Source of the DNA: an uncultured Dokdonia sp.
Lineage (GTDB): Bacteria > Bacteroidota > Bacteroidia > Flavobacteriales > Flavobacteriaceae
DNA length: 64,000 nucleotides
Direction: 5' to 3'
Assembly (NCBI GenBank): GCA_947503305.1
Contig: CANNDF010000007.1
Location: forward strand, 1-64,000
Below, piece after piece: positions 3,162 through 57,235 of this stretch. Made by a program: the position numbers and the translations under genes. How positions within the stretch are numbered: the stretch's first letter is position 1; each line of letters opens with the position of its first letter. The notes beneath the pieces were generated by a model. It saw only the letters and a list, made by a program, of their open reading frames with translations. It was not told the origin of the DNA and did no database searches.

Positions 3162-3898
3162 ATAGAAGATCCTTTACAAAAAAAGCAGTTTTAACTACTA
3201 TTGCGACAAGTTTGCCTTTCTGCCTATTTGCAAAGGGAATGTTACCACCCATAGATGAGGTGGAGCTTATAGGTAAAGGAAATCCGACATTAAGCAAAGG
3301 AATTGATTATCAAGTACGTCCTAAAGTAGCAATTGCTTTTAAAGCAATGAAAGCAAAAGCATTAGAAGATGGGATCCAGATAAAAGTTGTGTCTAGTTAT
3401 CGCGATTATAATCATCAAAATCGTATTTGGGAACATAAGTTTAAACGCTTTCGCGAAAGCGGACTCTCCCCTATTCAAAGTATTAAAAAAATTATAGAGT
3501 ACTCTACAATTCCTGGTACTTCAAGGCATCACTGGGGGACGGATTTAGATCTCATAGACGGTGCAAAACAAGTGACAGGAGATGTTTTGGTTCCTTCAAA
3601 ATTTCACGGCACTGGTCCTTTTTGTAAGTTCAAAGAGTGGATGGATATACATGCACAATCTTTTGGTTTTTATCTAGTCTATACAGATGTCCCTAATAGA
3701 AAAGGGTTTAATTACGAACCCTGGCATTATAGTTATAAAGCTCTCTCCAAGGGGTATCTTGACTTGTATAGAGAATTAGATATCAAATCGATTTTACAAA
3801 AAAACGAATTGGTAGGAAGTGATTCTTTTTCTGATGAATTCATCACAGCATATATCACAGAAAATATTCTGGATATCAATCCAGATTTACTAACTTAA
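3158..3898 (+). CDS. VanY-type D-alanyl-D-alanine carboxypeptidase (M15B)
   Basis: The product is 246 residues. The N-terminus (NRRSFTKKAVLTTIATSLP) has a twin-arginine pattern followed by a hydrophobic stretch, so export by Tat is plausible. The M15 zinc site is intact: SRHHWGTDLDL (His124 and Asp131 of the SxHxxGxxxD motif) and EPWHYSY (His190), with the upstream substrate loop SSYRDYNHQNRIW. Such enzymes trim the terminal D-Ala of peptidoglycan stems in the periplasm. One exact copy of the dispersed palindrome lies inside the gene and encodes RFRES at residues 98-102. Its stop codon overlaps that of the convergent TPR gene. Pairing with acetyltransferases is not explained. Confidence 0.88.
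   Translation: MNRRSFTKKAVLTTIATSLPFCLFAKGMLPPIDEVELIGKGNPTLSKGIDYQVRPKVAIAFKAMKAKALEDGIQIKVVSSYRDYNHQNRIWEHKFKRFRESGLSPIQSIKKIIEYSTIPGTSRHHWGTDLDLIDGAKQVTGDVLVPSKFHGTGPFCKFKEWMDIHAQSFGFYLVYTDVPNRKGFNYEPWHYSYKALSKGYLDLYRELDIKSILQKNELVGSDSFSDEFITAYITENILDINPDLLT
3447..3460. repeat. Dispersed palindrome, exact copy 1
   Basis: GCTTTCGCGAAAGC, extended to 16 bp by flanking C and G. It lies in the VanY gene in the frame that reads Arg-Phe-Arg-Glu-Ser, unlike the Ala-Phe-Ala-Lys-Ala frame of most coding copies. Confidence 0.95.
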
Positions 3899-4881
3899 AG
3901 AGAGTCTATAATTTCTTTTTCTTTGAGTGCTTCCTTAAAATCGGGACGATCTTCCAGAGCTTTTGTAATCCATGCAGTTGCTTTTTGTTTTTCCCCTTTG
4001 TGCTTATAAATTTGAGCAAGTCTATAATACGCCCAATCTTTAGGAACTCCATCTTCTGCAGAATGTCTTTCAATATATTTATCTAGACATGCGATTCCTT
4101 GATCAAGTCCTATCCCATACTGCCCGGCTATCTTCCCTAACTGATAATGCAATCTGTTATCTGAATCGTGTTTTTCTTGAGCTACTTTGAGCGTTTCTAT
4201 TGCTTTTTCAGGGGCGTTATTTTTTTCGTAATGTTCGTATAATTTTGTGTAACATGTAACAGATCCTCCTACTTCTACAGCTTTAAGATAGTTACGTTCT
4301 GCATCTTCTGGGCGGTCATTATACTCGGCTATATATCCATGTGCAAGATATCCATCTACAGGAGAAATTTTTGCGAGTTGATCGGCATATCGTTTAGCTT
4401 TATTTTCACTACCACCTACAATACCAGGGAGTTGAATATAAAATTCAACTAGCGCCCATCGGGTTTCTATATGATTGGGATCTAAGCTTGCTGCTGTTGA
4501 AAATGCTTTTTTAATATCACCTATAAGCCCTAGCGCCCGTAATCTATTAATAGTAAGGGCTTTCATTCCTAAAGCTCCGCCATACTTATAGTGATAGTTT
4601 GCTACTTTTGGTTGTAATTCTACTAAACGTTCATAATAATCAATTGCCAAATCCCAGTCTTTTGCATAACCGTATGCATCACCTATATATTCTAACGTTT
4701 GTAAATGGTTAGGGTTACTAGTCAAGTAGTCTTTAAAATAGGGTAATGACTTTTGATATTCTTCTTGTTTGAAAAGTGTTTCTGCTTTCGCGAAAGCGTT
4801 ATAATCTACACCTCCATCATCTTCTGAAGATTGTGCATAACACATCACAGGAAAAAGTAAGATTAAAAGCCATTTTACCAT
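3895..4881 (-). CDS. Secreted tetratricopeptide-repeat protein
   Basis: The start is placed at 4881, where MVKWLLILLFPVMCYAQ forms a clean signal peptide; the longer upstream frame adds a poor, charged leader. The mature protein is almost entirely TPR helices: FKQEEYQKSLPYFKDYLTSNP, then AKDWDLAIDYYERLVELQP and so on to KGEKQKATAWITKALEDRP near the C-terminus. TPR arrays mediate protein contacts, here probably in the periplasm. A palindrome copy encodes AFAKA just after the signal peptide. The next gene (DUF4136 lipoprotein) lies 59 bases upstream on the same strand. The stop overlaps the convergent VanY stop by a few bases. A TATATTTG-like -7 box is present at 4896-4903, without a matching -33 element. 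Confidence 0.85.
   Translation of the reverse strand: MVKWLLILLFPVMCYAQSSEDDGGVDYNAFAKAETLFKQEEYQKSLPYFKDYLTSNPNHLQTLEYIGDAYGYAKDWDLAIDYYERLVELQPKVANYHYKYGGALGMKALTINRLRALGLIGDIKKAFSTAASLDPNHIETRWALVEFYIQLPGIVGGSENKAKRYADQLAKISPVDGYLAHGYIAEYNDRPEDAERNYLKAVEVGGSVTCYTKLYEHYEKNNAPEKAIETLKVAQEKHDSDNRLHYQLGKIAGQYGIGLDQGIACLDKYIERHSAEDGVPKDWAYYRLAQIYKHKGEKQKATAWITKALEDRPDFKEALKEKEIIDSL
4784..4797. repeat. Dispersed palindrome, exact copy 2
   Basis: Encodes Ala-Phe-Ala-Lys-Ala in the TPR protein, about ten residues after the predicted signal peptide cleavage point, a position tolerant of insertion. Confidence 0.95.
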
Positions 4882-4940
4882 AGGATTTTTTTTTGCAAAT
4901 ATATACGAAAATAGTACCAAAGAAGATTTTACGAATACCC

Positions 4941-5462
4941 TTATTGTGGAGGATATTTTTTAAAGATTTTTTCTACGAGTCTCTTAAAATACTGATCACG
5001 TTGATCTGGAGTAGCTTTTATTTTTACATCACTCTCACTTACGGCTTCCCATATCTGAGTACCTTCTTGATCCATATCATAAAACCCTATGGTAATTACT
5101 TGATGTTGCTCCCTTCCTCCTATAGGAATACCTCCATTTACGCCAACACCTACATTACCGCCACCGCCACCTATGCCTACTCCTAGCGTATTACGTGATG
5201 TCGTCTCATACTCGGAAGCTGTAATTTCTATCGAAATAGTATTGGAATTTGTACGTGTATACCCTTTACTTTGTAGTACGCTATCTGTGAATCTAATAAA
5301 ACGACGTTCATCAAAATCAGATAGTCCCGTAGGTTGTGTTAAATCGTATTGATAGGTCGTATAGGTGTCAAAAGCTGCTTTCTTATCATAATCGTACTCT
5401 ACAAAAGTGCTCCCACAACTGATACAACAAATCATTAGAAAAAATAGCAAAATGAATCGCAT
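4941..5462 (-). CDS. DUF4136 family lipoprotein
   Basis: The 173-residue product begins with a lipoprotein signal whose lipobox ends CISC, so the mature protein starts at a lipidated cysteine. The rest matches DUF4136: FDTYTTYQYD near the start, RFTDSVLQSKGYT, ISIEITASEYETTSRN, a Gly/Val-rich segment (GVGIGGGGGNVGVGVNGG), then ITIGFYDMDQEGTQIWEAVSESDV and a C-terminal helix ending KKYPPQ. The family is periplasmic or outer-membrane associated; its function is not known. The 230-base stretch upstream (5463-5692) has no gene; I see only a short AAATTCT/AGAATTT inverted repeat in it near 5590. Confidence 0.85.
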   Translation of the reverse strand: MRFILLFFLMICCISCGSTFVEYDYDKKAAFDTYTTYQYDLTQPTGLSDFDERRFIRFTDSVLQSKGYTRTNSNTISIEITASEYETTSRNTLGVGIGGGGGNVGVGVNGGIPIGGREQHQVITIGFYDMDQEGTQIWEAVSESDVKIKATPDQRDQYFKRLVEKIFKKYPPQ

Positions 5463-5692
5463 CTGTAGTTTTTTGTTTAAATATAAACAAAAGCCTGCCT
5501 ACAATAGTGTGCTTTTACTATTTCTTAACGAATCTTTTGATTGCAGTTCTTTTGACCTGATTGCATTGTTAAAAGATACTTTTGCTTTAAATTCTTTAAG
5601 ATTGAGAATTTGTTGTGGCCTATAATGATTTTACCAAACATAGAATTTACGGCAATAGATTCTAATCCAATGTTCAGCGCATAGAACACAAA

Positions 5693-6691: not shown

Positions 6692-6712
6692 ATGTATCGG
6701 TTTTCTACCCTT

Positions 6713-7937: not shown

Positions 7938-7951
7938 GCTTTCGCGAAAGC
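7938..7951. repeat. Dispersed palindrome, exact copy 3
   Basis: Intergenic copy ending eight bases before the purK ATG, extended to 16 bp by C and G. In RNA it could form a 6-bp hairpin over the ribosome landing site. Confidence 0.95.
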
Positions 7952-12550: not shown

Positions 12551-13765
12551 TTATTTATTTTTAAGAGCTATCCATCTGGACATATATTTTGTACTCTGCA
12601 TTGTATGATGTTGCAATAATTGCCCCGTAAAGTTTGACAAGCGGTGTTCTTTTAAATTCCTATAACAATCTTCTATTGTAGTTATAAAGGGTTGTGTAAA
12701 ATTGCTTTTCTGAAAATGTGTACGGATAATTACTTCTCCATTTTTTTGGGAGATGGTCCAGTGTTTTTCGTCTTGATATAGATGTATCGCAGCTTTAGCA
12801 AAAGCAAAAAAATCATCTTCTATACAACCACTCCAAGGTAGCGAATCATGCATAGCTTCGGCACCTATAGTAGTAGTTACACTAGGAGTTCCATATAACA
12901 TCGAATCAATAAATTTTCCTTTAAGACCTGCGCCAAATCGTAAAGGTGCCAGAAGCACACGTGCATTTTTAAGAACTCCAGAAGCAGTATGAGCTCTCCC
13001 TTTGATTATAAACCCATCCTTTTCTGCATGTAATTGCCACACTTTAGGAGATGGGTATGCTCCATAAATATATAATTGGGCTTCAGGTAATTCTTTTCGT
13101 ATTAGAGGCCATATTTTTTCTTTTAAAATACAAACCGCATCCCAATTAGGCGGGTGCAAAAAATTTCCAATTGAAACAAAATGCCTACGCTCTTTAAAAG
13201 GGATAAAATTAGTATCCATGCTATCTATTAAGAAGGGAAGGTAATAAAGCAATGTATCTGGTATCTTAAAAAAATTACTAAGCAACTCCATCTCATATGA
13301 AGAAATAATTAACGTAAGATCAGATCTATAGATACTGGCTATTTCGCGTTTTGCAACATCAGATATAAGATCATCCACGTTAAAAGCACGTTTTTCTTTT
13401 AAAGCCTGATGACGAGCTTTGCGAAGGCAATGTAAATCTTCAGTATCCAATATACGTATTGCCTTAGGGCAGAATTCTGAAATACGCCAACCAAATTGCT
13501 CTTCGACCATAAATCGATCAAATAGCACAATTTGAGGTGATAATGCTTTTACGAATCTATCAAATCCATCATCATTTATAGCTACTGTTACAATAGTAAT
13601 CCCAAGAGACTCCAGATTATATGCATACTCACTTTCTGAGGCTGTGGAGGCATATGTTATCCTATATCCATTGGCAAGAAATAAAGTAAGAATTTGTAAC
13701 ATACGTTCCCCTGCCGCCGAAGAATTAGGCTCTACCCATACATTAGAAATGACTAGTACTTGCAT
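12551..13765 (-). CDS. Glycosyltransferase, group 1 (GT4-like)
   Basis: The 404-residue product has a GT-B pattern. The N-terminal half starts VLVISNVWVEPNSSAAGERML and contains LFDRFMVEEQFGWRISEFCP. The C-terminal half has FVSIGNFLHPPNWDAVCILKE, AQLYIYGAYPSPKV, the nucleotide-sugar loop ARVLLAPLRFGAGLKGKFIDSM and TPSVTTTIGAEAM. The donor and acceptor cannot be assigned. It is transcribed divergently from the GbsR-type regulator, and a CAAAAATA (reverse TATTTTTG) -7 box at 13770-13777 sits just before its start. A degenerate palindrome copy encodes AFAKA at 12792-12805. Confidence 0.85.
   Translation of the reverse strand: MQVLVISNVWVEPNSSAAGERMLQILTLFLANGYRITYASTASESEYAYNLESLGITIVTVAINDDGFDRFVKALSPQIVLFDRFMVEEQFGWRISEFCPKAIRILDTEDLHCLRKARHQALKEKRAFNVDDLISDVAKREIASIYRSDLTLIISSYEMELLSNFFKIPDTLLYYLPFLIDSMDTNFIPFKERRHFVSIGNFLHPPNWDAVCILKEKIWPLIRKELPEAQLYIYGAYPSPKVWQLHAEKDGFIIKGRAHTASGVLKNARVLLAPLRFGAGLKGKFIDSMLYGTPSVTTTIGAEAMHDSLPWSGCIEDDFFAFAKAAIHLYQDEKHWTISQKNGEVIIRTHFQKSNFTQPFITTIEDCYRNLKEHRLSNFTGQLLQHHTMQSTKYMSRWIALKNK
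12792..12805. repeat. Dispersed palindrome, decayed copy (glycosyltransferase)
   Basis: GCTTTAGCAAAAGC differs from the exact palindrome at three positions but keeps the Ala-Phe-Ala-Lys-Ala coding on the minus strand, and it sits in the same kind of surface helix. Confidence 0.5.
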
Positions 13766-17769: not shown

Positions 17770-18579
17770 TTAAAAGAAATAAAGTAATAACCAAACTATA
17801 GGTAAACTTTCTATCCAAAAAGACGCAAAATATCTAGATTGTTTTTCATTAGAAAAATAAATACCAATAGTAGTAATCACACAAATACATAACGTTTTTA
17901 TAACCATATTATAAGAAAACGTATCTTTTAAAAATTCAATACATAAAAGAAATAGTAAAAAAAGCGCACCTAGTATTTGGGTGCGCTTTTTTCCTATTTT
18001 TTGAGGTATCGTTCCTAATGTCTCTGAATCAAATTGTATATCCCGTATTTCAAAAGGCAATATAATTGTAATTACAAATAAGAATCGCTGGATAAAAATC
18101 ATCCATACATCCCAATCTATCGCACCCCCTATCTGAAATAAAGGCAATAAAACAGTCACGCCAGACCAGACTAAAGCGACAATAAATATCTTAATGCCCT
18201 GTAATGATCTTAAATTACGCTTTCGCGAAAATATAGGCACCGCATAAAACAACGTTAACCCACCTAAAATTGCCAGAGTTAATAACACTTCTCTAGAAAG
18301 ATTAAATCCAAAAAAGCACATCAATAAAAAACACAAAAATGAAAAAATCTGAATCCACCTGAGAGAACTCGTTAAACTCCGATGGTGCAATCCAGCAACC
18401 TCTGCATATTTAACAAAATTATAACCTGTTATACTGCCAAAAAATACAAAAGCAATAAGGGTCTTATCTATAAAAATGTTTAACGATAGGTACGTGATAA
18501 GAGTAAGTGCAACCACTGCAAAGCTTACATGTATACTACTATTTATATAAAACTCAAAAAAGCGTTTAAAAAACTTCAT
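17770..18579 (-). CDS. UbiA-like integral membrane protein
   Basis: The start at 18579 (MKFFKRFFEFYINSS) is preferred over a six-codon extension. The 269-residue product has about eight membrane helices and the spacing of UbiA prenyltransferases. The second Asp motif region is recognisable (LPFEIRDIQFDSETLGTIPQKIGKKRTQ), but the first, normally NDxxDxxxD, is replaced by GYNFVKYAE, so it may not bind prenyl diphosphate in the usual way. A decayed palindrome copy (FSRKRN) and a terminator-like hairpin both lie in its coding sequence. It converges on the anti-sigma gene with five bases between. Confidence 0.75.
   Translation of the reverse strand: MKFFKRFFEFYINSSIHVSFAVVALTLITYLSLNIFIDKTLIAFVFFGSITGYNFVKYAEVAGLHHRSLTSSLRWIQIFSFLCFLLMCFFGFNLSREVLLTLAILGGLTLFYAVPIFSRKRNLRSLQGIKIFIVALVWSGVTVLLPLFQIGGAIDWDVWMIFIQRFLFVITIILPFEIRDIQFDSETLGTIPQKIGKKRTQILGALFLLFLLCIEFLKDTFSYNMVIKTLCICVITTIGIYFSNEKQSRYFASFWIESLPIVWLLLYFF
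17958..17992. terminator. Bidirectional terminator hairpin inside a coding sequence
   Basis: A-run plus GCGCACC pairs with GGTGCGC plus T-run: a 13-bp perfect stem with a 9-base loop and U-runs for either strand. It lies within the UbiA-like gene, about 190 bases past the convergent anti-sigma gene, for which it is the first terminator on the plus strand. Confidence 0.7.
18219..18230. repeat. Dispersed palindrome, truncated copy (UbiA-like gene)
   Basis: GCTTTCGCGAAA, 12 of 14 bases, lost at one end. On the minus strand it is read in the frame giving Phe-Ser-Arg-Lys-Arg, between two membrane helices. Confidence 0.7.
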
Positions 18580-18705: not shown

Positions 18706-21555
18706 ATGAATACAGATTCGTTTGCAGCTCGCCATATAGGCCCGAGAAGAAGTGACCTCCCATCTATGCTCGAAATGGTAGGCGTCACCACTATGGAACA
18801 GCTTATATATGAAACTATTCCTGACAACATACGCTTAAAAGAAAAAATAGCTCTTGATGATGCCTTAAATGAGCAAGAATTTGCAGCACATATCCAAGAA
18901 TTAGCAGCCGAAAATCAAGTATTCAAGTCATATATAGGACTAGGGTATCACGAAGCAGTAACACCTGCAGTAATACAACGCAATATTCTAGAAAATCCAG
19001 GTTGGTATACAGCCTATACCCCTTATCAAGCAGAAATCGCTCAAGGACGTCTAGAAGCTTTACTCAATTATCAAACTATGATAACTGACCTTACAGGCAT
19101 GCAACTTGCAAATGCATCTCTTCTTGATGAGGCTACAGCAGCTGCCGAGGCTATGGCACTCCTTTTTGCGGTTCGTAGTAGGGATCAAAAGAAAGCAAAC
19201 ATCTGTAAATTTTTTGTTTCTGATGAAATATTACCGCAAACGTTATCTTTATTACAAACACGATCTACCCCAATAGGTGTAGAACTTGTAATAGGAAATC
19301 ATGAAACGTTTACATTTTCTGAAGATTTTTTTGGGGCTATTCTTCAATATCCAGGGAAATCAGGACAAATTATTAATCTCTCAGAATTTGTAACTCAGGC
19401 AATTAATGCTGGAATAAAAGTAGCCGTTGCAGCAGATATTTTAAGCCTTGTAAAATTACGTGCTCCCGGAGAAATGGGTGTTGATGTAGTTGTAGGAACT
19501 ACCCAGCGTTTTGGAATTCCATTAGGATATGGAGGCCCTCATGCTGCCTATTTTGCAACAAAAGAAGAATATAAACGTAATATCCCAGGACGTATCATAG
19601 GGGTCACAAAAGACACAAATGGTAATCGCGCATTACGAATGGCTCTTCAAACTCGTGAACAACATATAAAAAGAGACAAAGCAACTTCAAATATATGTAC
19701 CGCCCAAGTACTACTGGCGGTAATGGCTGGTATGTATGCAGTGTATCACGGACCAAACGGCCTTTCTCATATTGCAAATAAAGTACATAGAAGTGCTGTT
19801 ACACTTGCAGATACTCTTGAAAAATTAGGGCTATATCAAATCAACACATCTTATTTTGACACGATTACTATAAAAACAGATAGTAGTAGCGTTTCCGCTT
19901 TCGCGAAAGCAGAAAAAATAAACTTTCATTATCCAGATGAAAATACAGTATCTATTGCGCTCAATCAAGCTACAAACATAGCTGATCTAAATGCTATTGT
20001 GGCTGTCTTTGCAAAAGCGGTAGGTAAAGAAACCATTACTATTAATGCTATTCATGAAAATGATATTATTGATAGTACAGTTGCTAGAGATACAACTTTT
20101 CTAACGCATGAAGTGTTTAATCTATACCACTCAGAAACTGAGTTAATGCGTTATATAAAAAAACTAGAACGCAAAGATCTTTCATTAAATCATTCTATGA
20201 TTTCTTTAGGTTCGTGTACTATGAAACTCAATGCAGCTTCTGAGATGCTCCCTTTAAGCAATCCCCAATGGGGAAACATACATCCGTTTGTGCCTATAGA
20301 ACAAGCACAAGGATATCAAAAGATGCTTCATAAACTAGAAGATCAACTTACTAAAATCACAGGATTTTCTGGCACTTCCCTTCAACCCAACTCTGGTGCC
20401 CAAGGAGAGTATGCAGGCCTTATGGTTATACGTGCATATCATGAGTCTAGAGGAGATAATCATCGTAATATTTGCTTAATTCCATCATCTGCTCATGGCA
20501 CAAATCCAGCGAGTGCTGTAATGGCTGGAATGAAAGTAATTGTAACAAAGGCCTTGGAGAATGGAAATATTGACGTAGATGATCTTAGATCAAAAGCAGA
20601 GGCACATAAAGATCATCTAGCGGCCTTAATGGTAACATATCCTTCTACTCATGGAGTATATGAAAGTGCTATTAAAGAAATCACAGCGATCATACATGAC
20701 AATGGAGGTCAAGTCTATATGGACGGAGCAAATATGAATGCTCAAGTTGCGCTTACTAATCCAGGAGCAATTGGAGCAGATGTATGCCATCTCAACTTAC
20801 ACAAAACTTTTGCAATTCCACACGGAGGTGGAGGTCCTGGAGTAGGTCCTATTTGTGTAGCAAAACAATTGGTTCCTTTTTTACCTTCAAATCCTATAAT
20901 TAACACAGGAGGAGAACAGGCAATTTCTGCTATTTCAGCAGCTCCTTGGGGATCTGCGCTAGCCTGTTTGATTTCTTATGGTTATATTACAATGTTAGGT
21001 GAAAATGGATTACGTAAATCTACTGAATATGCTATCTTAAATGCTAACTACATCAAAGAACGACTAGATGGCCATTATCAATGCCTATATACAGGTGAAC
21101 GTAATCGAGCTGCTCATGAAATGATTATAGATTGCCGTCCATTTAAAGCAAATGGAGTTGAAGTAACAGATATAGCAAAGCGATTAATGGACTATGGTTT
21201 TCATGCGCCTACTGTATCTTTCCCTGTAGCAGGTACAATGATGATTGAACCTACAGAAAGTGAGAGTAAAGAGGAGCTAGATCGTTTTTGTGACGCTATG
21301 ATTAGTATCCGTAAAGAAATCGAAGTTGCCACTCCAGAAAATCGTAACGATGTACTTCGCAATGCTCCTCATACCTTAGCAATGCTTACAGATGATACGT
21401 GGGAGTTTCCATATAGTAGAGAGAAAGCTGCATACCCGCTTTCATATGTTGCCGAAAATAAGTTTTGGCCTACAGTACGTCGTGTAGATGATGCGTATGG
21501 AGATCGTAACTTAATCTGCACCTGTGCTCCTATTGAGGAATATATGGAAGCCTGA
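18706..21555 (+). CDS. gcvP: Glycine dehydrogenase (decarboxylating), P protein
   Basis: The 949-residue product is the single-chain P protein of the glycine cleavage system, which decarboxylates glycine with pyridoxal phosphate and passes the methylamine group to lipoyl-GcvH. The N-terminus (FAARHIGPRRSDLPSMLEMVG) and GYGGPHAAYFATKEEYKRNIPGRIIG are typical. The cofactor lysine is Lys700 in LNLHKTFAIPHGGGGPGVGP. Length is normal. An exact palindrome copy encodes SAFAKAE at about residues 397-403, in the linker between the two homologous halves. A TAATTTTG box at 18677-18684 could be its -7 element. gcvH and gcvT are not in the window. Confidence 0.97.
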   Translation: MNTDSFAARHIGPRRSDLPSMLEMVGVTTMEQLIYETIPDNIRLKEKIALDDALNEQEFAAHIQELAAENQVFKSYIGLGYHEAVTPAVIQRNILENPGWYTAYTPYQAEIAQGRLEALLNYQTMITDLTGMQLANASLLDEATAAAEAMALLFAVRSRDQKKANICKFFVSDEILPQTLSLLQTRSTPIGVELVIGNHETFTFSEDFFGAILQYPGKSGQIINLSEFVTQAINAGIKVAVAADILSLVKLRAPGEMGVDVVVGTTQRFGIPLGYGGPHAAYFATKEEYKRNIPGRIIGVTKDTNGNRALRMALQTREQHIKRDKATSNICTAQVLLAVMAGMYAVYHGPNGLSHIANKVHRSAVTLADTLEKLGLYQINTSYFDTITIKTDSSSVSAFAKAEKINFHYPDENTVSIALNQATNIADLNAIVAVFAKAVGKETITINAIHENDIIDSTVARDTTFLTHEVFNLYHSETELMRYIKKLERKDLSLNHSMISLGSCTMKLNAASEMLPLSNPQWGNIHPFVPIEQAQGYQKMLHKLEDQLTKITGFSGTSLQPNSGAQGEYAGLMVIRAYHESRGDNHRNICLIPSSAHGTNPASAVMAGMKVIVTKALENGNIDVDDLRSKAEAHKDHLAALMVTYPSTHGVYESAIKEITAIIHDNGGQVYMDGANMNAQVALTNPGAIGADVCHLNLHKTFAIPHGGGGPGVGPICVAKQLVPFLPSNPIINTGGEQAISAISAAPWGSALACLISYGYITMLGENGLRKSTEYAILNANYIKERLDGHYQCLYTGERNRAAHEMIIDCRPFKANGVEVTDIAKRLMDYGFHAPTVSFPVAGTMMIEPTESESKEELDRFCDAMISIRKEIEVATPENRNDVLRNAPHTLAMLTDDTWEFPYSREKAAYPLSYVAENKFWPTVRRVDDAYGDRNLICTCAPIEEYMEA
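19897..19910. repeat. Dispersed palindrome, exact copy 4
   Basis: Encodes Ala-Phe-Ala-Lys-Ala on the plus strand, in the linker between the N- and C-terminal halves of GcvP. Confidence 0.95.
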
Positions 21556-23425: not shown

Positions 23426-24276
23426 TGGATCTTTACATTGTCATACCATGCCATAATGAAGCAACACTGATCGATCAGACATTAACTTCACTTGTCCAGC
23501 AGACAGTTCTTCCCAAAAAGATTGTCGTTGTAAACGATAATAGTACTGACAATTCTGAAGAAGTCATCACCACATTTACAAAAAAATATCCATATATTTC
23601 CATAGTAAATTCAAATGCGCAAGCAACACACCTACCAGGCAGTAAGGTTATTAATGCTTTTCAAAAGGGCTTAGACACGCTAGATGAGGAATATGATATC
23701 CTATGTAAATTTGATGCTGATCTTATTTTCCCTCCTGAATATATAGAAACAATTCTATCCCATTTCAAACAACATCCAGATGTAGGAATGGTAGGTGGAT
23801 TTTGTCATATTAAAAAAGGAGAGCAATGGGAACTTGAAAGCCTTACCAATAAAGATCATATTAGAGGTGCTCTAAAAGCATATCGTAAAGAATGTTTTAT
23901 TGATATAGGAGGGTTAAAGCCCGCTATGGGATGGGATACAATAGATGAGCTTTTGGCTAAATATCATAAATGGAAGATCATCACTGATGACCGTCTTGCC
24001 GTAAAACATTTAAAACCTACGGGCAACACCTATACAGCCGCAGCAAAATACAAACAAGGGGAAGCCTTTTATACAATGCGATATGGATTTATACTGACTT
24101 GTATCGCTTCATTAAAACTGGCTACACGCAAAAAAAGACTAGGATTCTTTTGGGATTATCTTCGAGGTTATTTTCGCGCAAAGCGAAATAAACAACATTA
24201 CTTAGTAAACAAAGAAGAAGGTATTTTCATAAGAAAGCTCCGCTGGAAAGGTATTGCTTCCAAAATAAAAGGCTAA
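23425..24276 (+). CDS. Glycosyltransferase family 2
   Basis: The 283-residue product has the GT-A fold of family 2: IVIPCHNEATLIDQTLTSL, KIVVVNDNSTDNSEEV, CKFDADLIFPPEYIETIL (DxD-type region), GGLKPAMGWDTIDELLAKYH and a basic C-terminus. It adds sugar from a nucleotide donor to a cell-surface or polysaccharide acceptor that cannot be named. It is translationally coupled to the methyltransferase-like gene. A loose relative of the palindrome (TTCGCGCAAAGCG) occurs near its end at about 24172-24184, encoding FRAKR. Confidence 0.88.
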   Translation: MDLYIVIPCHNEATLIDQTLTSLVQQTVLPKKIVVVNDNSTDNSEEVITTFTKKYPYISIVNSNAQATHLPGSKVINAFQKGLDTLDEEYDILCKFDADLIFPPEYIETILSHFKQHPDVGMVGGFCHIKKGEQWELESLTNKDHIRGALKAYRKECFIDIGGLKPAMGWDTIDELLAKYHKWKIITDDRLAVKHLKPTGNTYTAAAKYKQGEAFYTMRYGFILTCIASLKLATRKKRLGFFWDYLRGYFRAKRNKQHYLVNKEEGIFIRKLRWKGIASKIKG

Positions 24277-35160: not shown

Positions 35161-35174
35161 GCTTTCGCGAAAGC
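35161..35174. repeat. Dispersed palindrome, exact copy 6
   Basis: Intergenic copy nine bases past the cdd stop codon and upstream of the pdhA promoter box. Confidence 0.95.
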
Positions 35175-39900: not shown

Positions 39901-40753
39901 CGGCAGGTTGAGATAAAGGCGCAACACGAAGTCCATTGCTTCCGCCTGAGGTAATATAATAGTAGGATCTTTCTGAATAAGGATTGATATTAGTCTGTAA
40001 TTCTTCATGAAACATCCGGGAACTTTCTCCATAAAATAATACATGATCATTTCCTGAAAAAGTACCATCTTCACCTCCTACGACTTGTATAGGTATTTCC
40101 TGTAAATCAAATACAGTATTATCACTGTTTAATAATGGCAATGGAGATCCCCCTATCCCATATACTTTAATAGTTTGAGGATTGATTCCATCTACTGGCA
40201 TTCCTATACTCTGTAGAAAACCTCTAGTGATTTGGTGTACTCCAGTATTTTCTACAAAAAACTTATAGAAATTTCCACTGGCAAGTAACGAATTTGTAAT
40301 AGGTGGTGGTGGGTTACGTGTAAATCCCGCTTTCGCGAAAGCGTACTTAGCAACTGCACTCGTTACTCTTTTATATTGTCCATTTTGAACAACATAGGGC
40401 GATAGACTTAAAACGGCATATTTTTTATCTCTAGCCTGAGCTGTTGCAATATTATAGGACACCGTTGAGGGAATTCCTTTCTTATCAAGCCTAGCTAATT
40501 CCTTACTTGGTATAGTCTCATAACGGATGTTTTCAAGACGAATAGAAGAAGCTACAATATCTTGGTTTACCTCCCATTGTTTTGTGTACTCCCACACACC
40601 AGAATCATTTTTATATACATAAGGAAGTGTATTAGGAGTTGTTTTGTTTTTTTTAGAAGTAGTAGCATTCCAATCCAGAGCGATGCGCACTTCTTGTGCA
40701 ATGCTAATAGAACAAAATAAAAATATAAGTATAGAGGAAAGTATTTTCATCAT
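36911..40753 (-). CDS. porU: T9SS C-terminal signal peptidase PorU
   Basis: The 1280-residue product starts with a signal peptide (MMKILSSILIFLFCSISIAQ) and contains a gingipain-type C25 cysteine peptidase core: His783 in VTYLGHGGEELLASE and Cys817 in ILITVTCEFTKFDNP, with TRNIATT-like and GGVVGMIATTREIF after. The end (YPNPFVNYTEFWFNHN, then VYVYKITVKSTL and a final KLVIL) is a type A T9SS sorting domain of its own. PorU removes sorting domains from cargo at the cell surface. An exact palindrome copy encodes YAFAKAG at about residues 138-143. An inverted repeat sits directly before the ATG. gldJ is divergent from it. Confidence 0.96.
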   Translation of the reverse strand: MMKILSSILIFLFCSISIAQEVRIALDWNATTSKKNKTTPNTLPYVYKNDSGVWEYTKQWEVNQDIVASSIRLENIRYETIPSKELARLDKKGIPSTVSYNIATAQARDKKYAVLSLSPYVVQNGQYKRVTSAVAKYAFAKAGFTRNPPPPITNSLLASGNFYKFFVENTGVHQITRGFLQSIGMPVDGINPQTIKVYGIGGSPLPLLNSDNTVFDLQEIPIQVVGGEDGTFSGNDHVLFYGESSRMFHEELQTNINPYSERSYYYITSGGSNGLRVAPLSQPAGAATTTITTFEDYQFHEEDLENIVLVGRRWFGESFNVENEQSFEFVFPNVVASQPARLIVEAAAISESDAGTSFEVSVNGASVGSFNITNISDIFLARGGGLDITIPINSPEVTVTLTYNNSGNPSSIGYLDFISLDVPRALQGTGEQINFKNNAAATLSGIGEYVFNNAAGYTQIWDVTTPTAIGAVINQGGNTINFKSQLGVLRQYVAVTPSDYFEPLRESGDTRVANQDLKGTIFQNASGDFEDIDYLMITGDLLRSQAEQLAQHNRSFRGLNVKVVSLNQIYEEFGGGRQDIGAIRNFVRYVYENASSEENRVKYLCMFGDASVDYKDRLQGNNNIMPTFQTFQSFSLANSYMSDDFFGFMDENEGMVEGSIGRNDKLDIAVGRIIADTPVLAQIVVNKIINYNARSSFGRWRNNFVIISDDADEIGSAGFGLQVNLDALGDEIENQRPSVNVTKIHSDAFQQTSSAGGDRYPQVNEAISNALEVGSLVVTYLGHGGEELLASEAIITQSVVDELANDERLPILITVTCEFTKFDNPLRPTGGEGFIWSPDGGVVGMIATTREIFVGLGVEFNNVIAAEIFAFDDREIVSIAESVRIAKNQIQNNDELRRVIFFLGDPAMELAFPKPDIRLTAINDVPVGADLPPLRALDRIKVNGVVTSELGQVLSNYTGTLAVTLYDKDVDRQTLGNDGVTDSNGNLLLLDFKELGAILYRGQASVVNGQFEFEFVMPRDTAIPFGQGRMNFYSERLDVLEDQSGVNRDIIIGGLNEDAPPDNLGPQIRLFMNDESFVNGGITDDSPIILAKLEDENGINTAGGIGHDLLAILDGDETNPIIMNDFYETEVDNFMRGTASRKLRNLEEGLHTLTFIAWDVYNNSSRAELQFVVVGDDELQLENVLNYPNPFVNYTEFWFNHNRPFEPLDVQVQIFTVSGKVVKTINQTVINEGFLSRDIVWDGLDDFGDAIGKGVYVYKITVKSTLTNNRVEKFEKLVIL
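40329..40342. repeat. Dispersed palindrome, exact copy 7
   Basis: Encodes Ala-Phe-Ala-Lys-Ala in the N-terminal part of PorU, between strand-rich segments KRVTSAVAKY and GFTRNPPPP. Confidence 0.95.
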
Positions 40754-42687: not shown

Positions 42688-43965
42688 ATGAGTATAGAAG
42701 AATTACATCAGTATTTCCTTAAAAGTAGTGGCATTACCACTGACACGCGCAAACTTCAAAAAGACTCTATTTATGTTGCATTAAATGGTGAAAACTTTAA
42801 TGGGAATGCATATGCAAAATCGGCAATAGAAAAAGGAGCATCTCTCGCTATTGTTGATGAAGAAAAATACATGGATGGAGACAAAATCATAATCGTTTCT
42901 GACGCCTTAAAAACCTTACAACAACTAGCCACATATCACCGCAATTATTTAGGCATTCCAATTATAGGACTAACTGGGAGCAATGGAAAAACAACGACAA
43001 AAGAACTTATCAATGCCGTACTTTCTAAAAAATATACAACTACTGCCACACTCGGTAACTTGAATAATCATATCGGAGTGCCTCTCACCCTTTTATCTAT
43101 GGATTCTGACACAGAAATTGGGATCGTAGAAATGGGAGCAAATCATCAGGGAGAGATTGCAATGCTCTCTGAAATTGCACAACCTGATTATGGATATATT
43201 ACCAACTTTGGAAAAGCACATCTAGAAGGTTTTGGGGGTATACAAGGAGTAATAAAGGGCAAAAGTGAGTTGTATAAATACCTCAAAAAAAAGAACGGCA
43301 CTGTATTTATAAATAAAGAAGATCCTATTCAAGTACAACAATCTCAACACAATCGTATAAAAACATTTGCCTCTTCCCAAGCAGATTATACAATCACAAT
43401 ACATGATGCAAAACCTTGGGCGAGTATCACCTATGATCACACCCATATTACAAGTCAACTCACAGGCAATTACAATGCCTTAAATATCGCCGCAGCAGTG
43501 GCAATAGGTAGTTATTTTGAAGTAGACAAACTCGTCATAAAAGATGCTATAGAAACCTATACCCCTACAAACAATAGATCGCAAATTATTCAGAAGGGGA
43601 AAATTACAATTATTCTTGATGCATACAATGCAAATCCTACAAGTATGGAAGCTGCTTTGTATAATTTAAGTATGCAAAAAACACCTATAAAAATTGCATT
43701 TTTAGGAGATATGTTTGAAGTAGGAGAAACAGCTATGGAGGAGCATCAAAAAATGCTAAAGCTTGCCCATGATTTAGATATAACCACTGTCTATGCTGTA
43801 GGGCCAAGTTTTGGAAATTCAAAGCCCGTAAATAAAAATCAACATGTATTTGAATCTTTCAATGCTTTTGCAAAAGCATACCAAAAATCCACTATAGAAA
43901 ACGCTACATTTCTTATAAAAGGGTCACGCGGGATGGCTATGGAACGTGTATTAGATATTATCTAA
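42688..43965 (+). CDS. murF: UDP-MurNAc-tripeptide--D-Ala-D-Ala ligase
   Basis: The 425-residue product has the Mur ligase order: substrate-binding N-terminus (SSGITTDTRKLQKDSIYVALNGENFNGN), P-loop IIGLTGSNGKTTTKELI (about 92-108), TLGNLNNHIGVPLTLL, IVEMGANHQGEIAMLSEIAQPDYGYITNFGKAHLEGFGG, and the C-terminal DAYNANPTSMEAAL, LGDMFEVG and GSRGMAMERVL. It adds D-Ala-D-Ala to the peptidoglycan precursor in the cytoplasm. A symmetric variant of the palindrome (GCTTTTGCAAAAGC) encodes AFAKA near the C-terminus. Confidence 0.96.
   Translation: MSIEELHQYFLKSSGITTDTRKLQKDSIYVALNGENFNGNAYAKSAIEKGASLAIVDEEKYMDGDKIIIVSDALKTLQQLATYHRNYLGIPIIGLTGSNGKTTTKELINAVLSKKYTTTATLGNLNNHIGVPLTLLSMDSDTEIGIVEMGANHQGEIAMLSEIAQPDYGYITNFGKAHLEGFGGIQGVIKGKSELYKYLKKKNGTVFINKEDPIQVQQSQHNRIKTFASSQADYTITIHDAKPWASITYDHTHITSQLTGNYNALNIAAAVAIGSYFEVDKLVIKDAIETYTPTNNRSQIIQKGKITIILDAYNANPTSMEAALYNLSMQKTPIKIAFLGDMFEVGETAMEEHQKMLKLAHDLDITTVYAVGPSFGNSKPVNKNQHVFESFNAFAKAYQKSTIENATFLIKGSRGMAMERVLDII
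43864..43877. repeat. Dispersed palindrome, symmetric variant (murF)
   Basis: GCTTTTGCAAAAGC differs from the exact copy by C to T and the matching G to A, so it is still a perfect palindrome and still encodes Ala-Phe-Ala-Lys-Ala. Confidence 0.6.
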
Positions 43966-49191: not shown

Positions 49192-49211
49192 TATGCTTTC
49201 GCGAAAGCATA
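49192..49211. repeat. Dispersed palindrome, exact copy 8
   Basis: Core 49195-49208, extended to 20 bp by TAT and ATA. It lies five bases after the symporter stop and 54 bases before galE, where it could also act as a weak hairpin between the genes. Confidence 0.95.
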
Positions 49212-53690: not shown

Positions 53691-53697
53691 TTATAAA

Positions 53698-53729: not shown

Positions 53730-53735
53730 ATTCTG

Positions 53736-53810: not shown

Positions 53811-53917
53811 GAAATTTTTTAAAAGATATCGGTATCCTTTCTGCAATCCTTTATTGTGATTGCGGGTGCAAATATAGAGCAAAATCTATTTATGCCAAAC
53901 GTTTTATAAAGAAAAAA

Positions 53918-55135
53918 TTAAATTATTTCTGCAACTACAAATGTACTTCCACCTACAAAGATAAGATCCCTGAGAGTCGCTTCTTTTTTAGCACTCTCAT
54001 AGGCTTCTATCACACTTGGAAAACAATCTCCTTTAAGATCGTAACCACTAGCAATATCCATGAGTTTTTTACTATTCATACCCCTTGGAATATCAGGTTT
54101 ACAAAAATAGTAATGGGCATTTTCAGGAAAAAGAGGTAAGATACTTGACAGGTCTTTATCTGAAACCACTCCCAATACAATATGTAATCGTGTATATTTT
54201 TCTTTTTTAAGTTGCCGGATTACATAGAAAAGTCCTTCTTTATTATGCGCAGTATCACATATTACTTTAGGAGCCTCCTGTAATTGTTGCCATCTCCCCA
54301 ACAATCCTGTATTATTTACTACATTTTTCAACCCTTTAGCAATATGTTGTATTCCTATAACAAATCCTTTTTTCTGCAAAGTTGCTATAGTAACCTGTGC
54401 GGTACGAATATTATTTTTTTGATAATCCCCGATAAGATCTGATGATAAGGGCAAAGCATTAAATGCATATGCTTTCTCAAGTGGAGCATTACGTTTTTGC
54501 GAAAGCGTATCAAAAATCTCTTCTGTCTCTTTATGATATTCTCCTATTATTACTGGGATTTCTTCTTTTATAATACCTGCCTTTTCGGTAGCGATTTCTG
54601 ATAGTGTCGTTCCTAAAAATTGAGTATGATCTAAACCTATATTAGTAATCACAGATACTTCTGGCAGTATAATATTTGTAGCGTCTAAACGGCCACCAAG
54701 ACCCACTTCTATAACTGCAATATCTACCTGTTGCTTATGAAAGTATTCAAAAGCCATCCCTACAGTCATTTCAAAAAAAGAAAGCTTATGTTCTTCAAAA
54801 AACGACTTATGCTTTTTTACAAAACCCATCACAAACTGTTTACTTACAGGAGCTCCATTAATTCGAATACGCTCCCTAAAGTCTTTAAGATGTGGCGATG
54901 TGTATAACCCAACTTTATACCCCGCCTCATGAAGTATAGAAGCTAGCATATGACTAGTAGATCCTTTACCATTTGTACCACCAACATGTATTGTTTTATA
55001 GTTTACATGTGGGTTTTCTAAATATTCAGAAAGCAATTTAATATTGCTTAAATCTGTTTTATAGGCGGCTACTCCTTGCCGCTGATACATCGGTAGTTTA
55101 TTAAATAACCACGTTAAGGTCTCTTGATAATTAAT
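53918..55135 (-). CDS. folC: Folylpolyglutamate/dihydrofolate synthase, probable ATT start
   Basis: The product has the folate ligase order: PMYQRQGVAAYKTDL, P-loop IHVGGTNGKGSTSHMLASIL, LGGRLDATNI, TNIGLDHTQFLG, LLGRWQQLQEAPKVICDTAHN and VVSDKDLSSIL. The first ATG is at 55090, but the family N-terminus (NYQETLTWLFNKLPMYQRQG) continues in frame upstream, with no ATG, GTG or TTG before an in-frame TAA. The codon where the initiating Met belongs is ATT at 55133-55135, so I place the start there (405 residues); the conservative start is 55090. FolC adds glutamate to folates and makes dihydrofolate. A decayed palindrome copy encodes LSQKRN at 54493-54506. Confidence 0.9.
   Translation of the reverse strand: MNYQETLTWLFNKLPMYQRQGVAAYKTDLSNIKLLSEYLENPHVNYKTIHVGGTNGKGSTSHMLASILHEAGYKVGLYTSPHLKDFRERIRINGAPVSKQFVMGFVKKHKSFFEEHKLSFFEMTVGMAFEYFHKQQVDIAVIEVGLGGRLDATNIILPEVSVITNIGLDHTQFLGTTLSEIATEKAGIIKEEIPVIIGEYHKETEEIFDTLSQKRNAPLEKAYAFNALPLSSDLIGDYQKNNIRTAQVTIATLQKKGFVIGIQHIAKGLKNVVNNTGLLGRWQQLQEAPKVICDTAHNKEGLFYVIRQLKKEKYTRLHIVLGVVSDKDLSSILPLFPENAHYYFCKPDIPRGMNSKKLMDIASGYDLKGDCFPSVIEAYESAKKEATLRDLIFVGGSTFVVAEII
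54493..54506. repeat. Dispersed palindrome, decayed copy (folC)
   Basis: GTTTTTGCGAAAGC differs from the exact copy at two positions. It reads Leu-Ser-Gln-Lys-Arg in folC. Confidence 0.5.
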
Positions 55136-55147
55136 ACGGCAATAAAT

Positions 55148-55703: not shown

Positions 55704-55800
55704 AGTATTTTCTTTAAGTATTAAAGATACGCATTAGGGCTGTGAATTTGAAACTACTCTGTATTTATACAAACTAGAACCTTATGATAACATGAGGCTA

Positions 55801-55842
55801 AAACAAAAAGAGTGGCATTACAATGCCACTCTTTTTGTTTTA
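55801..55842. terminator. Strong bidirectional terminator
   Basis: Arms 55801-55819 and 55824-55842 form a 19-bp perfect stem with a 4-base loop, with A- and T-runs at the ends. It lies 15 bases past the SnoaL-like gene's stop on the minus strand. Confidence 0.92.
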
Positions 55843-55857
55843 TATGAACTATTCTAT

Positions 55858-56211: not shown

Positions 56212-56345
56212 TTTCGTGTGATTTTAAGTTAATTATTTATCTGCCCATTGAGTCGGTTAATAAATAATCACTTACAAACTTTATGATGTCAATACGACAT
56301 AATGCTTGTCTATTTTCCTAAAATCCTTGAGAATTGGCTTTATTT

Positions 56346-57179
56346 TTAATTGGAAAGACTGAAACGGTATACAATTTTACCTATTTGTTTGGAAGGAGCC
56401 TTGCTATCTGCATTAAATTTTGTGGCAAGTGCAGCTGCTTTTGCAGGGTCAAGAAGACATTTAGAATTATTGGTTGTTCCTCTTACGCCAGGAACTGCTT
56501 TAATTACTTTTCCAGAGCGATCTACTTCAATGCTTACAACTACTGTTCCTGATTCATTGCATTCCTGAACACGTTTAGGCTTTCCTAATGCTTTGCGCCC
56601 ACCTAATAAATAGTTCCCATCGCCATCTAATCCTTTTCCAGTTCCGTAATAACTAGATGCATTGGGATCGCCATTAGGGTCACCCTTATCCCCTGCTTGA
56701 TTATCATCTCCTTCTCCTCCTTGCGCTATTCCATCTTTTTTAGGGCCATTAATCAGTGCATCAAGTGCGCTGGTTGTGCTCTTATCTGGTTTAGGATCTG
56801 GTTTTGCTTCTTCTACAGGTTTCTCTTCAGGAGTTTCTTTTGGTGTTTCTATTTTTGGCTTTGGAGTCTCTTTTGGTTTTTCTTCAATAACTGGAGCTTC
56901 TTCGGTATCCTGTGTAATTACCTCGTCCTTTATTTCAGGCTTAGGAGGTGTGGGTGTAGGTTGCGGTGCCGTATTCTTAGGTGCAGAGGCTACAGGTTTT
57001 GTAGGTTGTACATTTCCAGAGCCTACACTAGATGTTCCAAAATTGACAGCAATACCACCTTCCGGAGGTGGATCAAGATAGTCCATTCCTACCCAAAACA
57101 TAAGTAGCAATATAATAGTCATCAATAGTGTAGTAATTCTAAATGACTTTCGTTTATGTATGGTATCTAAGTAGGGCAA
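56346..57179 (-). CDS. TonB-type energy transducer
   Basis: The 277-residue product has a short cytoplasmic start, one membrane helix (about residues 15-33, TLLMTIILLLMFWVGMDYL), a long Pro/Lys/Glu-rich spacer (PTPTPPKPEIKDE to PDPKPDKSTTS), a Gly/Asp-rich part, and a C-terminal domain with CNESGTVVVSIEVDRSGKVIKAVPGVRGT and IVYRFSLSN. It carries proton-motive energy from ExbB-ExbD to outer membrane TonB-dependent receptors. It follows exbD in transcription, after a 66-base gap with an exact palindrome copy. Confidence 0.88.
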   Translation of the reverse strand: MPYLDTIHKRKSFRITTLLMTIILLLMFWVGMDYLDPPPEGGIAVNFGTSSVGSGNVQPTKPVASAPKNTAPQPTPTPPKPEIKDEVITQDTEEAPVIEEKPKETPKPKIETPKETPEEKPVEEAKPDPKPDKSTTSALDALINGPKKDGIAQGGEGDDNQAGDKGDPNGDPNASSYYGTGKGLDGDGNYLLGGRKALGKPKRVQECNESGTVVVSIEVDRSGKVIKAVPGVRGTTNNSKCLLDPAKAAALATKFNADSKAPSKQIGKIVYRFSLSN

Positions 57180-57221
57180 ATCTCTTTGTTGAGTTTAGTA
57201 TTATAAAGTTTATGTTATTTT

Positions 57222-57235
57222 GCTTTCGCGAAAGC
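57222..57235. repeat. Dispersed palindrome, exact copy 9
   Basis: Intergenic copy between exbD and tonB, 11 bases past the exbD stop and 43 bases before the tonB start; extended by flanking TT/AA to 18 bp. Confidence 0.95.

What the first reader, a model, noticed from the sequence alone, without database searches (positions are those of the whole stretch)
3447..57235. Dispersed 14-bp palindrome GCTTTCGCGAAAGC, nine exact copies in 64 kb
Exact copies are at 3447, 4784, 7938, 19897, 29073, 35161, 40329, 49195 and 57222; decayed copies at 12792, 18219, 31288, 43864 and 54493. A given 14-mer is expected far less than once by chance in 64 kb. Four exact copies are intergenic, although intergenic DNA is a small part of the window. 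Five are inside unrelated genes (VanY, TPR protein, gcvP, guanylyltransferase, porU), four of them in the frame giving Ala-Phe-Ala-Lys-Ala, usually in linkers. The pattern recalls highly iterated palindromes such as cyanobacterial HIP1. It could be a protein-binding or methylation site for chromosome organisation or repair, or a tiny mobile palindrome. No system is shown here to recognise it.
Basis: partly seen in the sequence, partly recalled or inferred. Interest (0 to 1): 0.78.

Follow-up and report, generated by a model that had tools for sequence, protein, structure and literature searches.

The report
Evenly spaced genomic palindrome in Dokdonia
Marine bacteria of the genera Dokdonia and Nonlabens carry hundreds of exact copies of one 14-letter DNA palindrome, evenly spaced and conserved in place, which behaves like a 'self' tag of the kind some bacteria use to choose which DNA to take up, although its reader is unknown.

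Summary
All nine copies are present, and the genome has 570 exact copies in 4.26 Mb. The 18 Dokdonia genomes held have 369-905, four Nonlabens 551-664 and one more genus 408. The other 234 of 237 family genera sampled have 0-19.

Single-mismatch copies are rare (11 against 62 exact in 464 kb; 5 against 103 in a relative). Flanks show a dyad-symmetric preference out to about 20 bp (C-poor, T/G-rich 5' side). Copies use all three reading frames, are over-dispersed, and leave some long gaps. They arise and decay by point substitution, not insertion. Between relatives 78% identical, 6 of 6 aligned copies stay intact.

Phage contigs, some with integrase or Mu-type transposition genes, carry several copies each; two Nonlabens phages without an annotated integrase lack it. 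A sister genus has another iterated motif, ATTTCCGAAG.

This matches hallmarks of DNA uptake sequences except that it is palindromic. I favour an uptake-type self tag kept by biased transformation (0.45) over an anchor or repair site for an unknown dimeric chromosomal protein (0.3). No reader protein was identified and uptake was not tested.

The parts
3447..3460 (.). exact palindrome inside a VanY-like D-Ala-D-Ala carboxypeptidase gene (3158-3898 +), frame reading RFRES
4784..4797 (.). exact palindrome inside a TPR protein gene (3895-4920 -), frame reading AFAKA
7938..7951 (.). exact palindrome, intergenic, 8 bp before a PurK-like ATP-grasp gene (7960-9105 +)
19897..19910 (.). exact palindrome inside gcvP (18706-21555 +), AFAKA; same place intact in G158, G151, G159; nine other relatives have theirs 108 bp further on
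29073..29086 (.). exact palindrome inside a nucleotidyltransferase (ManC-like) gene (28505-29593 -), AFAKA; intact at the same place in G150, G164, G149, G158 (4 of the 4 relatives that align there, of 7 compared)
35161..35174 (.). exact palindrome, intergenic, 9 bp from a cytidine deaminase-like gene (35184-35666 -)
40329..40342 (.). exact palindrome inside a PorU-like peptidase C25 gene (36911-40753 -), AFAKA
49195..49208 (.). exact palindrome, intergenic, 7 bp after a sodium:solute symporter gene (47541-49187 +)
57222..57235 (.). exact palindrome, intergenic between 56346-57179 (-) and 57246-57638 (-)
12792..12805 (.). decayed copy (2 mismatches); intact at the aligned place in G150, G162, G159
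18219..18232 (.). decayed copy (2 mismatches); intact in G164 and G150
31286..31299 (.). two-mismatch copy (reader gave 31288); outside the fetched relatives, ancestry unknown
43864..43877 (.). two-mismatch copy; ancestry not tested
54493..54506 (.). two-mismatch copy; ancestry not tested
23572..23585 (.). lost site: the window reads ACATTTACAAAAAA here; 15 of the 16 same-genus relatives in the alignment have the exact palindrome (the 16th, G163, has no sequence there; G161 was not fetched)

Best explanation
GCTTTCGCGAAAGC, better written tnYGCTTTCGCGAAAGCRna with C-poor, T/G-rich 5' flanks on both strands, is a self-DNA tag working like a DNA uptake sequence. Proposed mechanism: fragments of released DNA that carry one copy are preferentially bound by a dimeric receptor of the flavobacterial transformation machinery, taken up and recombined. 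Alleles that have or gain the motif by point mutation therefore replace those that lack it. A second copy within one fragment's length adds little, which spaces copies evenly; new islands have few; resident prophages and conjugative elements join in slowly; sister genera use another dialect. SHOWN: abundance, exactness, flank symmetry, spacing, substitution origin, conservation, patchy genus distribution, presence in phages, another iterated motif in a sister genus. INFERRED: a receptor, uptake bias, that transformation is what drives it, and that the long gaps are acquired islands.
For: 570 exact copies in the genome; 18 of 18 genomes of the genus; Nonlabens 4 of 4 and G208. Very strong consensus: 62 exact, 11 one-mismatch; 103 and 5. 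26 of 62 copies intergenic although about 12% of DNA is; 36 coding copies in all three frames. Dyad flank bias z 8.7 and 9.5, in coding and intergenic copies alike. Over-even spacing: G000, 93 of 99 gaps kept, CV 0.46 against 0.66-0.88 for random gaps cut the same way; G149, 210 of 217 gaps, 0.53 against 0.70-0.84. Gaps of 63 and 76 kb without a copy. Point-substitution origin. 6 of 6 and 6 of 7 aligned copies intact at 78% and 77% identity against 5% of control 14-mers. Phage contigs carry several copies with the same flank preference. Different iterated, directional motif in sister genera: ATTTCCGAAGNAANNA 164 copies in G076, 64 in G304, 58 in G301, 0 in two Dokdonia, one Nonlabens and G208. 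Literature parallels: USS evolve by point mutation, have very strong consensus, are under-represented in new segments, evenly spaced (passages of PMC7811141, PMC1939737, PMC1626085); DUS dialects within one family (abstract of PMC3630211). A relative, Riemerella columbina, prefers its own DNA (section 16 of PMC7965970). DUF5689, a domain of a protein essential for R. anatipestifer transformation (section 19 of PMC8459023), is in 19 of 19, and ComEC in 9 of 9, genomes searched.
Against: The uptake sequences described in the papers read are not palindromes; a palindrome with dyad-symmetric flanks suggests a cytoplasmic homodimer. DUF5689 and ComEC occur equally in motif-rich and motif-poor genera, so nothing found explains the specificity. 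No paper in the library holds both Dokdonia and 'naturally competent' or both Nonlabens and 'natural transformation', so competence is unproven. Prophage DNA should be an inefficient target of transformation drive, yet phage contigs carry many copies. Density (about one per 4-8 kb) is below the roughly one per kb of USS/DUS. With all 99 gaps kept, G000 spacing is not regular (CV 1.15). Three other sister-genus samples (G078, G087, G101) show no clear iterated motif of their own. Conservation weakens with distance: 3 of 6, 2 of 4 and 1 of 6 at about 72% identity.
Confidence: 0.45

Rival explanations
1. Anchor, loading or repair site for an unidentified homodimeric chromosomal protein (nucleoid organiser, condensin loader, topoisomerase or recombination factor) that needs about one site per few kb; selection on the cell, not drive, maintains it.
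For: Perfect palindrome with a roughly 50-bp dyad-symmetric preference and no base-by-base covariation of the two flanks, as for a dimer on duplex DNA; even spacing, with copies throughout the putative terminus; in the sparser genome G000 the copies are more regular than 3000 random thinnings of G149 (CV 0.46 against 0.56-0.80); resident phages would need sites too.
Confidence: 0.3
2. HIP1-type iterated palindrome maintained by DNA methyltransferase-linked repair or mutation bias.
For: Iterated palindrome, coding and non-coding, arising by substitution; 9 of the 11 one-mismatch copies differ by C-to-T or G-to-A.
Against: The 14-16 bp unit with about 20-bp flank preferences is far longer than a methyltransferase site; the inner core barely exceeds the full motif (TTTCGCGAAA 72 against 62 in 464 kb). 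HIP1 embeds GATC and CGATCG methyltransferase sites (passages of PMC4390886). A methyltransferase search was not done.
Confidence: 0.07
3. Licence against a nuclease or defence system: DNA without the motif is destroyed (Chi-like protection).
For: Density of one per few kb resembles E. coli Chi (recalled); phages carry it.
Against: Two Nonlabens phage records, 70.7 kb examined, have none within two mismatches; large motif-free stretches persist; Chi is short and directional (recalled).
Confidence: 0.08
4. A tiny mobile palindrome (REP/RAYT-like or MITE) spreading by insertion.
For: Exactness and dispersion; found in phages and in clusters in foreign genera.
Against: Among empty orthologous comparisons 379 are gap-free over the 14 bp, 203 have other gaps and 14 an insertion-like gap (non-independent); 14 bp would break reading frames; copies share flank preferences but not a flank sequence.
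Confidence: 0.02
5. Protein-level repeat (AFAKA peptide) or codon artefact.
For: 18 of 36 coding copies read AFAKA.
Against: 26 of 62 intergenic; three frames used; homologues without the DNA motif mostly encode other residues there.
Confidence: 0.01

Closest known systems
Uptake signal sequences of Pasteurellaceae (USS) and DNA uptake sequences of Neisseriaceae (DUS)
   Same: Hundreds of near-identical copies, very strong consensus, origin by point substitution, coding and non-coding, excess between genes, even spacing, long stretches without copies, weaker flanking preferences (USS), different motif in a sister genus, foreign motifs apparently marking horizontally moved elements
   Different: This motif is a perfect 14-bp palindrome with dyad-symmetric flanks, is about 4-8 times sparser, is in another phylum, and uptake bias is untested
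HIP1 (GCGATCGC) of cyanobacteria
   Same: Highly iterated palindrome, clade-specific, in genes and between them
   Different: 14 bp instead of 8, sparser (recalled for HIP1 density), no embedded methyltransferase site identified, long flank preference
Noc (NBS), SlmA and ParB (parS) sites
   Same: 12-16 bp palindromes scattered on a chromosome and read by a dimer (recalled)
   Different: Tens of copies and terminus or origin bias there (recalled); here hundreds, no clear terminus exclusion, no additional ParB
REP/BIME repeats with RAYT transposases
   Same: Short dispersed palindromes (recalled)
   Different: Not inserted here; RAYT genes were not searched

Membership tests
DNA uptake sequence (USS/DUS) | Hundreds to thousands of near-exact copies in the genome | tested here: met
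   570 in own genome; 369-905 in 18 of 18 genomes of the genus
DNA uptake sequence (USS/DUS) | Arises by point substitution, not insertion | tested here: met
DNA uptake sequence (USS/DUS) | Spacing more even than random | tested here: met
   for G000 only after setting aside 6 of 99 long gaps
DNA uptake sequence (USS/DUS) | Scarce in newly acquired DNA | tested here: inconclusive
   long gaps exist and two of the four poorest 20-kb stretches at 2.04-2.24 Mb of G149 have low GC, but that they are acquired islands is inferred; phage contigs carry copies
DNA uptake sequence (USS/DUS) | Clade-specific dialects | tested here: inconclusive
   G076, G304 and G301 have ATTTCCGAAGNAANNA, but no function is shown for it; 100-kb samples of G078, G087 and G101 show no comparable motif of their own
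DNA uptake sequence (USS/DUS) | Motif-bearing DNA is preferentially taken up by competent cells | not testable with these tools
   needs an uptake assay
DNA uptake sequence (USS/DUS) | Competence machinery present | tested here: met
   ComEC 9 of 9, DUF5689 19 of 19; equally present in motif-poor genomes, so not discriminating; other competence genes not searched
HIP1 | Sequence GCGATCGC containing GATC/CGATCG methyltransferase sites | tested here: not met
   motif is GCTTTCGCGAAAGC
HIP1 | Iterated palindrome far above expectation | tested here: met
Noc/SlmA nucleoid-occlusion sites | Depleted around the replication terminus | tested here: not met
   in G149, 4-8 copies per 20 kb in most stretches from 1.96 to 2.42 Mb, where GC skew changes sign near 2.3 Mb; dips to 1-3 are local. 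The terminus itself is placed by skew only
Noc/SlmA nucleoid-occlusion sites | A dedicated Noc-type ParB paralogue | tested here: not met
   one ParB_N match in each of 8 motif-rich genomes; TetR-type SlmA not searched
REP/RAYT or other mobile palindrome | Empty sites lack the element as a gap | tested here: not met

The most novel reading that the evidence does not exclude
Dokdonia and Nonlabens, and the phages resident in them, mark their DNA every few kb with an exact palindrome read by an undescribed dimeric protein, and the family has switched between such marks (palindromic in some genera, directional in others): a self-DNA marking system outside Pasteurellaceae and Neisseriaceae with a two-fold symmetric tag, serving uptake, chromosome upkeep or both.
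Probability: 0.5. Interest if true: 0.87.

Novelty: new variant of a known kind. Interest (0 to 1): 0.78.

Why it matters
Uptake sequences with proven function are known, as far as I recall, mainly in two proteobacterial families, and why genomes fill up with them is still argued (selection or drive). A sharp, palindromic, evenly spaced counterpart in marine Bacteroidota, with phages that follow it and a sister genus with another motif, would give an independent natural replicate, a good bait for the receptor (the site is exact), and a way to read gene flow in marine flavobacteria. If it is instead a chromosome site, it would point to an unknown nucleoid or repair protein. I found no paper that describes it: no paper in the library holds the 14-mer, and of the 5 papers with Dokdonia and 'palindrom' (all listed; titles and starts of abstracts seen) none is on this subject. 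Wider searches were seen only in part: Flavobacteri-/uptake (20 of 51 listed, 12 of 186) and ATTTCCGAAG or its complement (8 of 92 listed, no title on flavobacteria).

Tried and rejected
Rejected: insertion or mobility; protein repeat; terminus-excluded nucleoid occlusion site; Noc-type ParB paralogue; hairpin or terminator reading (flanks do not covary base by base; 36 of 62 copies lie inside genes); strict licence against degradation. Weak or led nowhere: DUF5689 and ComEC do not separate motif-rich from motif-poor genera; phage database searches gave only distant relatives, the nearest being Cellulophaga phage phi39:1 at 35% for one group's portal and Winogradskyella phage Peternella_1 at 54.5% for the other's terminase; k-mer screens of G078 and G101 gave CTTCGG/GAAG words that I read, without a test, as terminator hairpins, G101 also a dispersed repeat, and G087 nothing clear; canonical parS GTTTCACGTGAAAC is in none of the 300 loci then held, which says little because origins were not sampled. 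The named-genome scan used one longer form of the motif and shows no contig of G208's size, so it can miss motif-rich genomes. Against my reading: one-mismatch USS/DUS copies are, from recall, relatively commoner than here; ATTTCCGAAGNAANNA also has a few copies in eight other genomes (3-20 against 0-4 reversed controls).

Dropped rows: gaps of 20 kb or more for one G000 spacing figure (6 of 99), gaps over three times the median (7 of 217 G149, 6 of 99 G000), sites with fewer than 10 aligned columns, comparisons with unaligned flanks (133 outgroup, 395 ingroup); the comparisons kept there share species and sites and are not independent. Of 17 genus relatives, G161 was not fetched, and G153 was not in the tree because its gcvP is split by a stop. 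In the viral set, 8 of 30 records (one copy each, flanking GC 0.48-0.67) were set aside as probable chance; the 22 kept were found because they hold the 16-mer, so one copy each was subtracted for the corrected density. In the second phage, 35,000 of 35,652 bases and 56 of 58 features were seen.


Full report
Observation. The nine copies are exact and at the stated places; shuffles give none. Two-mismatch relatives are at the five stated places (one off by two bases) and at 15601. Three of the six decayed copies are intact at the aligned place in relatives.

Genome-wide count. The window is the start of contig 7 of a 4.26-Mb genome with 570 exact copies and none of the reversed control. In 464 kb of it (400 kb of contig 1 plus the window) there are 62 exact, 11 one-mismatch and 13 two-mismatch copies; 15 shuffled palindromes give means of 0.0, 0.0 and 1.2. 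A sample of 400 kb from a relative, G149, has 103 exact and 5 one-mismatch copies, 220 kb of G010 has 40 and 6, 120 kb of G208 has 15 and 2.

Who has it. All 18 genomes held of the genus have 369-905. In 397 family genomes from 237 genera (80 with any match) only three genera are rich: g1, g11 (four of four genomes, 551-664) and g191 (G208, 408); everything else has 0-19. A scan of 84,980 named species genomes with a longer form (91 stretches, 80 listed) returns Dokdonia and Nonlabens, the latter including strain BBFL7, whose placement I recall, in 75 of 80 listed loci; the other five are single hits in Clostridia, Crocinitomix and Cytophagaceae MAGs, Patiriisocius and Flagellimonas. Contig lengths tie g1 to Dokdonia (G165 contig 4 and NZ_CANMDS010000004.1, both 415,016) and g11 to Nonlabens (G010 contigs 2 and 6 and NZ_CANLXZ records, 166,721 and 133,206). 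In an order-level sample none of 104 genomes outside the family has more than one copy. A GcvP tree of 49 proteins puts G208 beside Dokdonia (support 84/91), Nonlabens elsewhere with G144 (84/88), and seven motif-poor genera as the sister of Dokdonia plus G208 (82/90), so the motif was gained twice, transferred, or lost in between; several supports are modest.

Anatomy. The palindrome extends weakly to tnYGCTTTCGCGAAAGCRna. From 4 to about 20 bp out, the 5' side on either strand is C-poor and T/G-rich (dyad GC-skew z 8.7 and 9.5), in coding and intergenic copies alike; 20-30 bp out z is 2.7, and beyond that it is gone. Left and right flanks do not covary base by base, so this is not an extended hairpin but looks like independent contacts of two half-sites. 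Nonlabens and phage copies share the preference; G208 shows a weaker form on 15 copies.

Distribution. 26 of 62 copies are intergenic although about 12% of the DNA is; the 36 coding copies use all three frames (18, 11 and 7) (a simple gene caller of mine). Spacing is over-dispersed: in G000, the 93 of 99 gaps under 20 kb have CV 0.46, with 2 short gaps against about 13 expected; with the six long gaps included CV is 1.15 and not unusual. Against random gaps truncated in the same way (0.66-0.88) 0.46 still stands out; G149 gives 0.53 on 210 of 217 gaps against 0.70-0.84, and 0.74 on its first 99 gaps untruncated (P 0.0004). G000 is more regular than 3000 random thinnings of G149 (0.56-0.80), as if losses are tolerated where a neighbour is near. 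In G149, 40 stretches of 20 kb around the chromosome hold 1-8 copies; the putative terminus near 2.3 Mb, placed by GC skew alone, is not empty; four poor stretches (2.04, 2.06, 2.20 and 2.22 Mb: 1, 2, 2, 3 copies) include the two of lowest GC.

Evolution. In a syntenic 10-kb block, copies sit at homologous places in clades: one in gcvP in nine species, another in 15 species and lost in the window's species. Empty sites carry ordinary coding sequence, often with different residues, so the DNA motif imposes on the protein. Comparing motif-bearing genomes with three motif-poor outgroups, 75 of 131 alignable empty sites are gap-free, 54 have other gaps and 2 are insertion-like; within the motif-bearing set 636 comparisons are shared intact, 304 empty and gap-free, 149 empty with other gaps, 12 insertion-like. 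Conservation is strong: at 78% identity 6 of 6 aligned copies are intact, at 77% 6 of 7, at 74% 5 of 6 and 4 of 6, against 2.5-5% of random 14-mers; at about 72% it is 3 of 6 and 2 of 4; at 81% one small comparison gives 1 of 2; the window's lineage has lost more (1 of 6 against G149).

Mobile DNA. Thirty viral records hold the longer form. Twenty-two carry 67 copies in 487 kb; subtracting the one that brought each record in leaves one per 10.8 kb, against one per roughly 4-8 kb in the hosts; gaps have mean 6.7 kb and CV 0.61. Portal, major head, tape-measure, terminase and head-protease genes identify members as phages; one group has an integrase and another Mu-type transposition genes, and the latter's terminase is nearest Winogradskyella phage Peternella_1, whose record annotates transposases. 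I ran families on 20 proteins only, so not every record is proven to be a phage. Related contigs share copies at the same places. Two Nonlabens phages with no integrase among the features seen have none within two mismatches in 70.7 kb. In motif-poor genera the few copies often, not always, cluster: in a gene that I read by eye as TolC-like, near a multicopper oxidase-like gene, with a 933-bp spacing that recurs in several genera, and on the same contig as a 616-aa ParB-type gene, nearest copy 5-13 kb away, in G012, G054, G073 and G101, which I read as conjugative elements from motif-rich hosts (inference). DUS dialects have been used in print to spot such elements in Neisseriaceae (title and start of abstract in the listing, PMC7371117).

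Another motif. In 100 kb of the motif-poor genus g77 (G076), every one of 21 TTTCCGAA occurrences is followed by G, against 0.4 expected for TTTCCGAAG; 12 are coding and 9 intergenic, with A-rich sequence downstream. The directional pattern ATTTCCGAAGNAANNA has 164 copies in G076, 64 in G304, 58 in G301, 3-20 in eight other genomes (G073 7, G078 12, G101 11, G039 8, G054 12, G012 20, G144 3, G007 12) and 0 in G000, G149, G010, G208 and G087; reversed controls 0-4, the 4 being G007. It shares TTTC..GAA with the palindrome and replaces it by lineage.

Interpretation. Point-mutation origin, very strong consensus, coding and non-coding copies, even spacing and dialects are published hallmarks of uptake sequences (passages read in PMC7811141, PMC1939737, PMC1626085; abstract and outline of PMC3630211). 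Flavobacteriaceae include transformable species with their own machinery (abstract and sections 19-20 of PMC8459023), and R. columbina transformation is competed by its own DNA but not by equal amounts of foreign DNA (section 16 of PMC7965970; that paper listed only A-rich words up to 10 bp as candidates). The DUF5689 and ComEC families are present here, but equally in motif-poor genera, and no paper in the library joins Dokdonia with 'naturally competent' or Nonlabens with 'natural transformation'. Symmetry argues the other way, toward a cytoplasmic dimer, and the two models are not separated by sequence alone. I commit to uptake at 0.45 and a chromosomal dimer site at 0.3.

Noticed in passing
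G076 (L307-L311): A second, directional iterated motif ATTTCCGAAGNAANNA (164 full matches) in a sister genus of unknown name, absent from the two Dokdonia, one Nonlabens and G208 genomes searched.
   Followed up: partly
G012:C18, G054:C4, G073:C1, G101:C1: Clusters of the Dokdonia/Nonlabens palindrome on the same contig as a 616-aa ParB-type gene, perhaps conjugative elements that came from motif-rich hosts.
   Followed up: partly
L032 (G101:C1:435088-438101): A gene that looks by eye like a TolC-type outer-membrane efflux protein carries two palindrome copies 933 bp apart; the same spacing recurs in G073, G078, G087, G178 and G232, suggesting one widely spread element; a multicopper oxidase-like gene lies near it.
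   Followed up: no
G000:C1:326200-389700 and 747500-823800: Palindrome-free stretches of 63 and 76 kb, candidate recently acquired islands of the window's genome; their gene content was not examined.
   Followed up: no
L257, L260, L266, L282 and L261, L268, L272, L289 (viral contigs): Two groups of apparently temperate phages of Dokdonia/Nonlabens-like hosts, one with an integrase, one Mu-like; their hosts can be guessed from the motif.
   Followed up: partly
G149, G151, G156, G000, G208: A second, divergent locus with DUF5689 domains, two domains in some (reading frames 565-1574 aa), besides the usual one; also in motif-poor G073 and G076, not found in three Nonlabens genomes searched.
   Followed up: no
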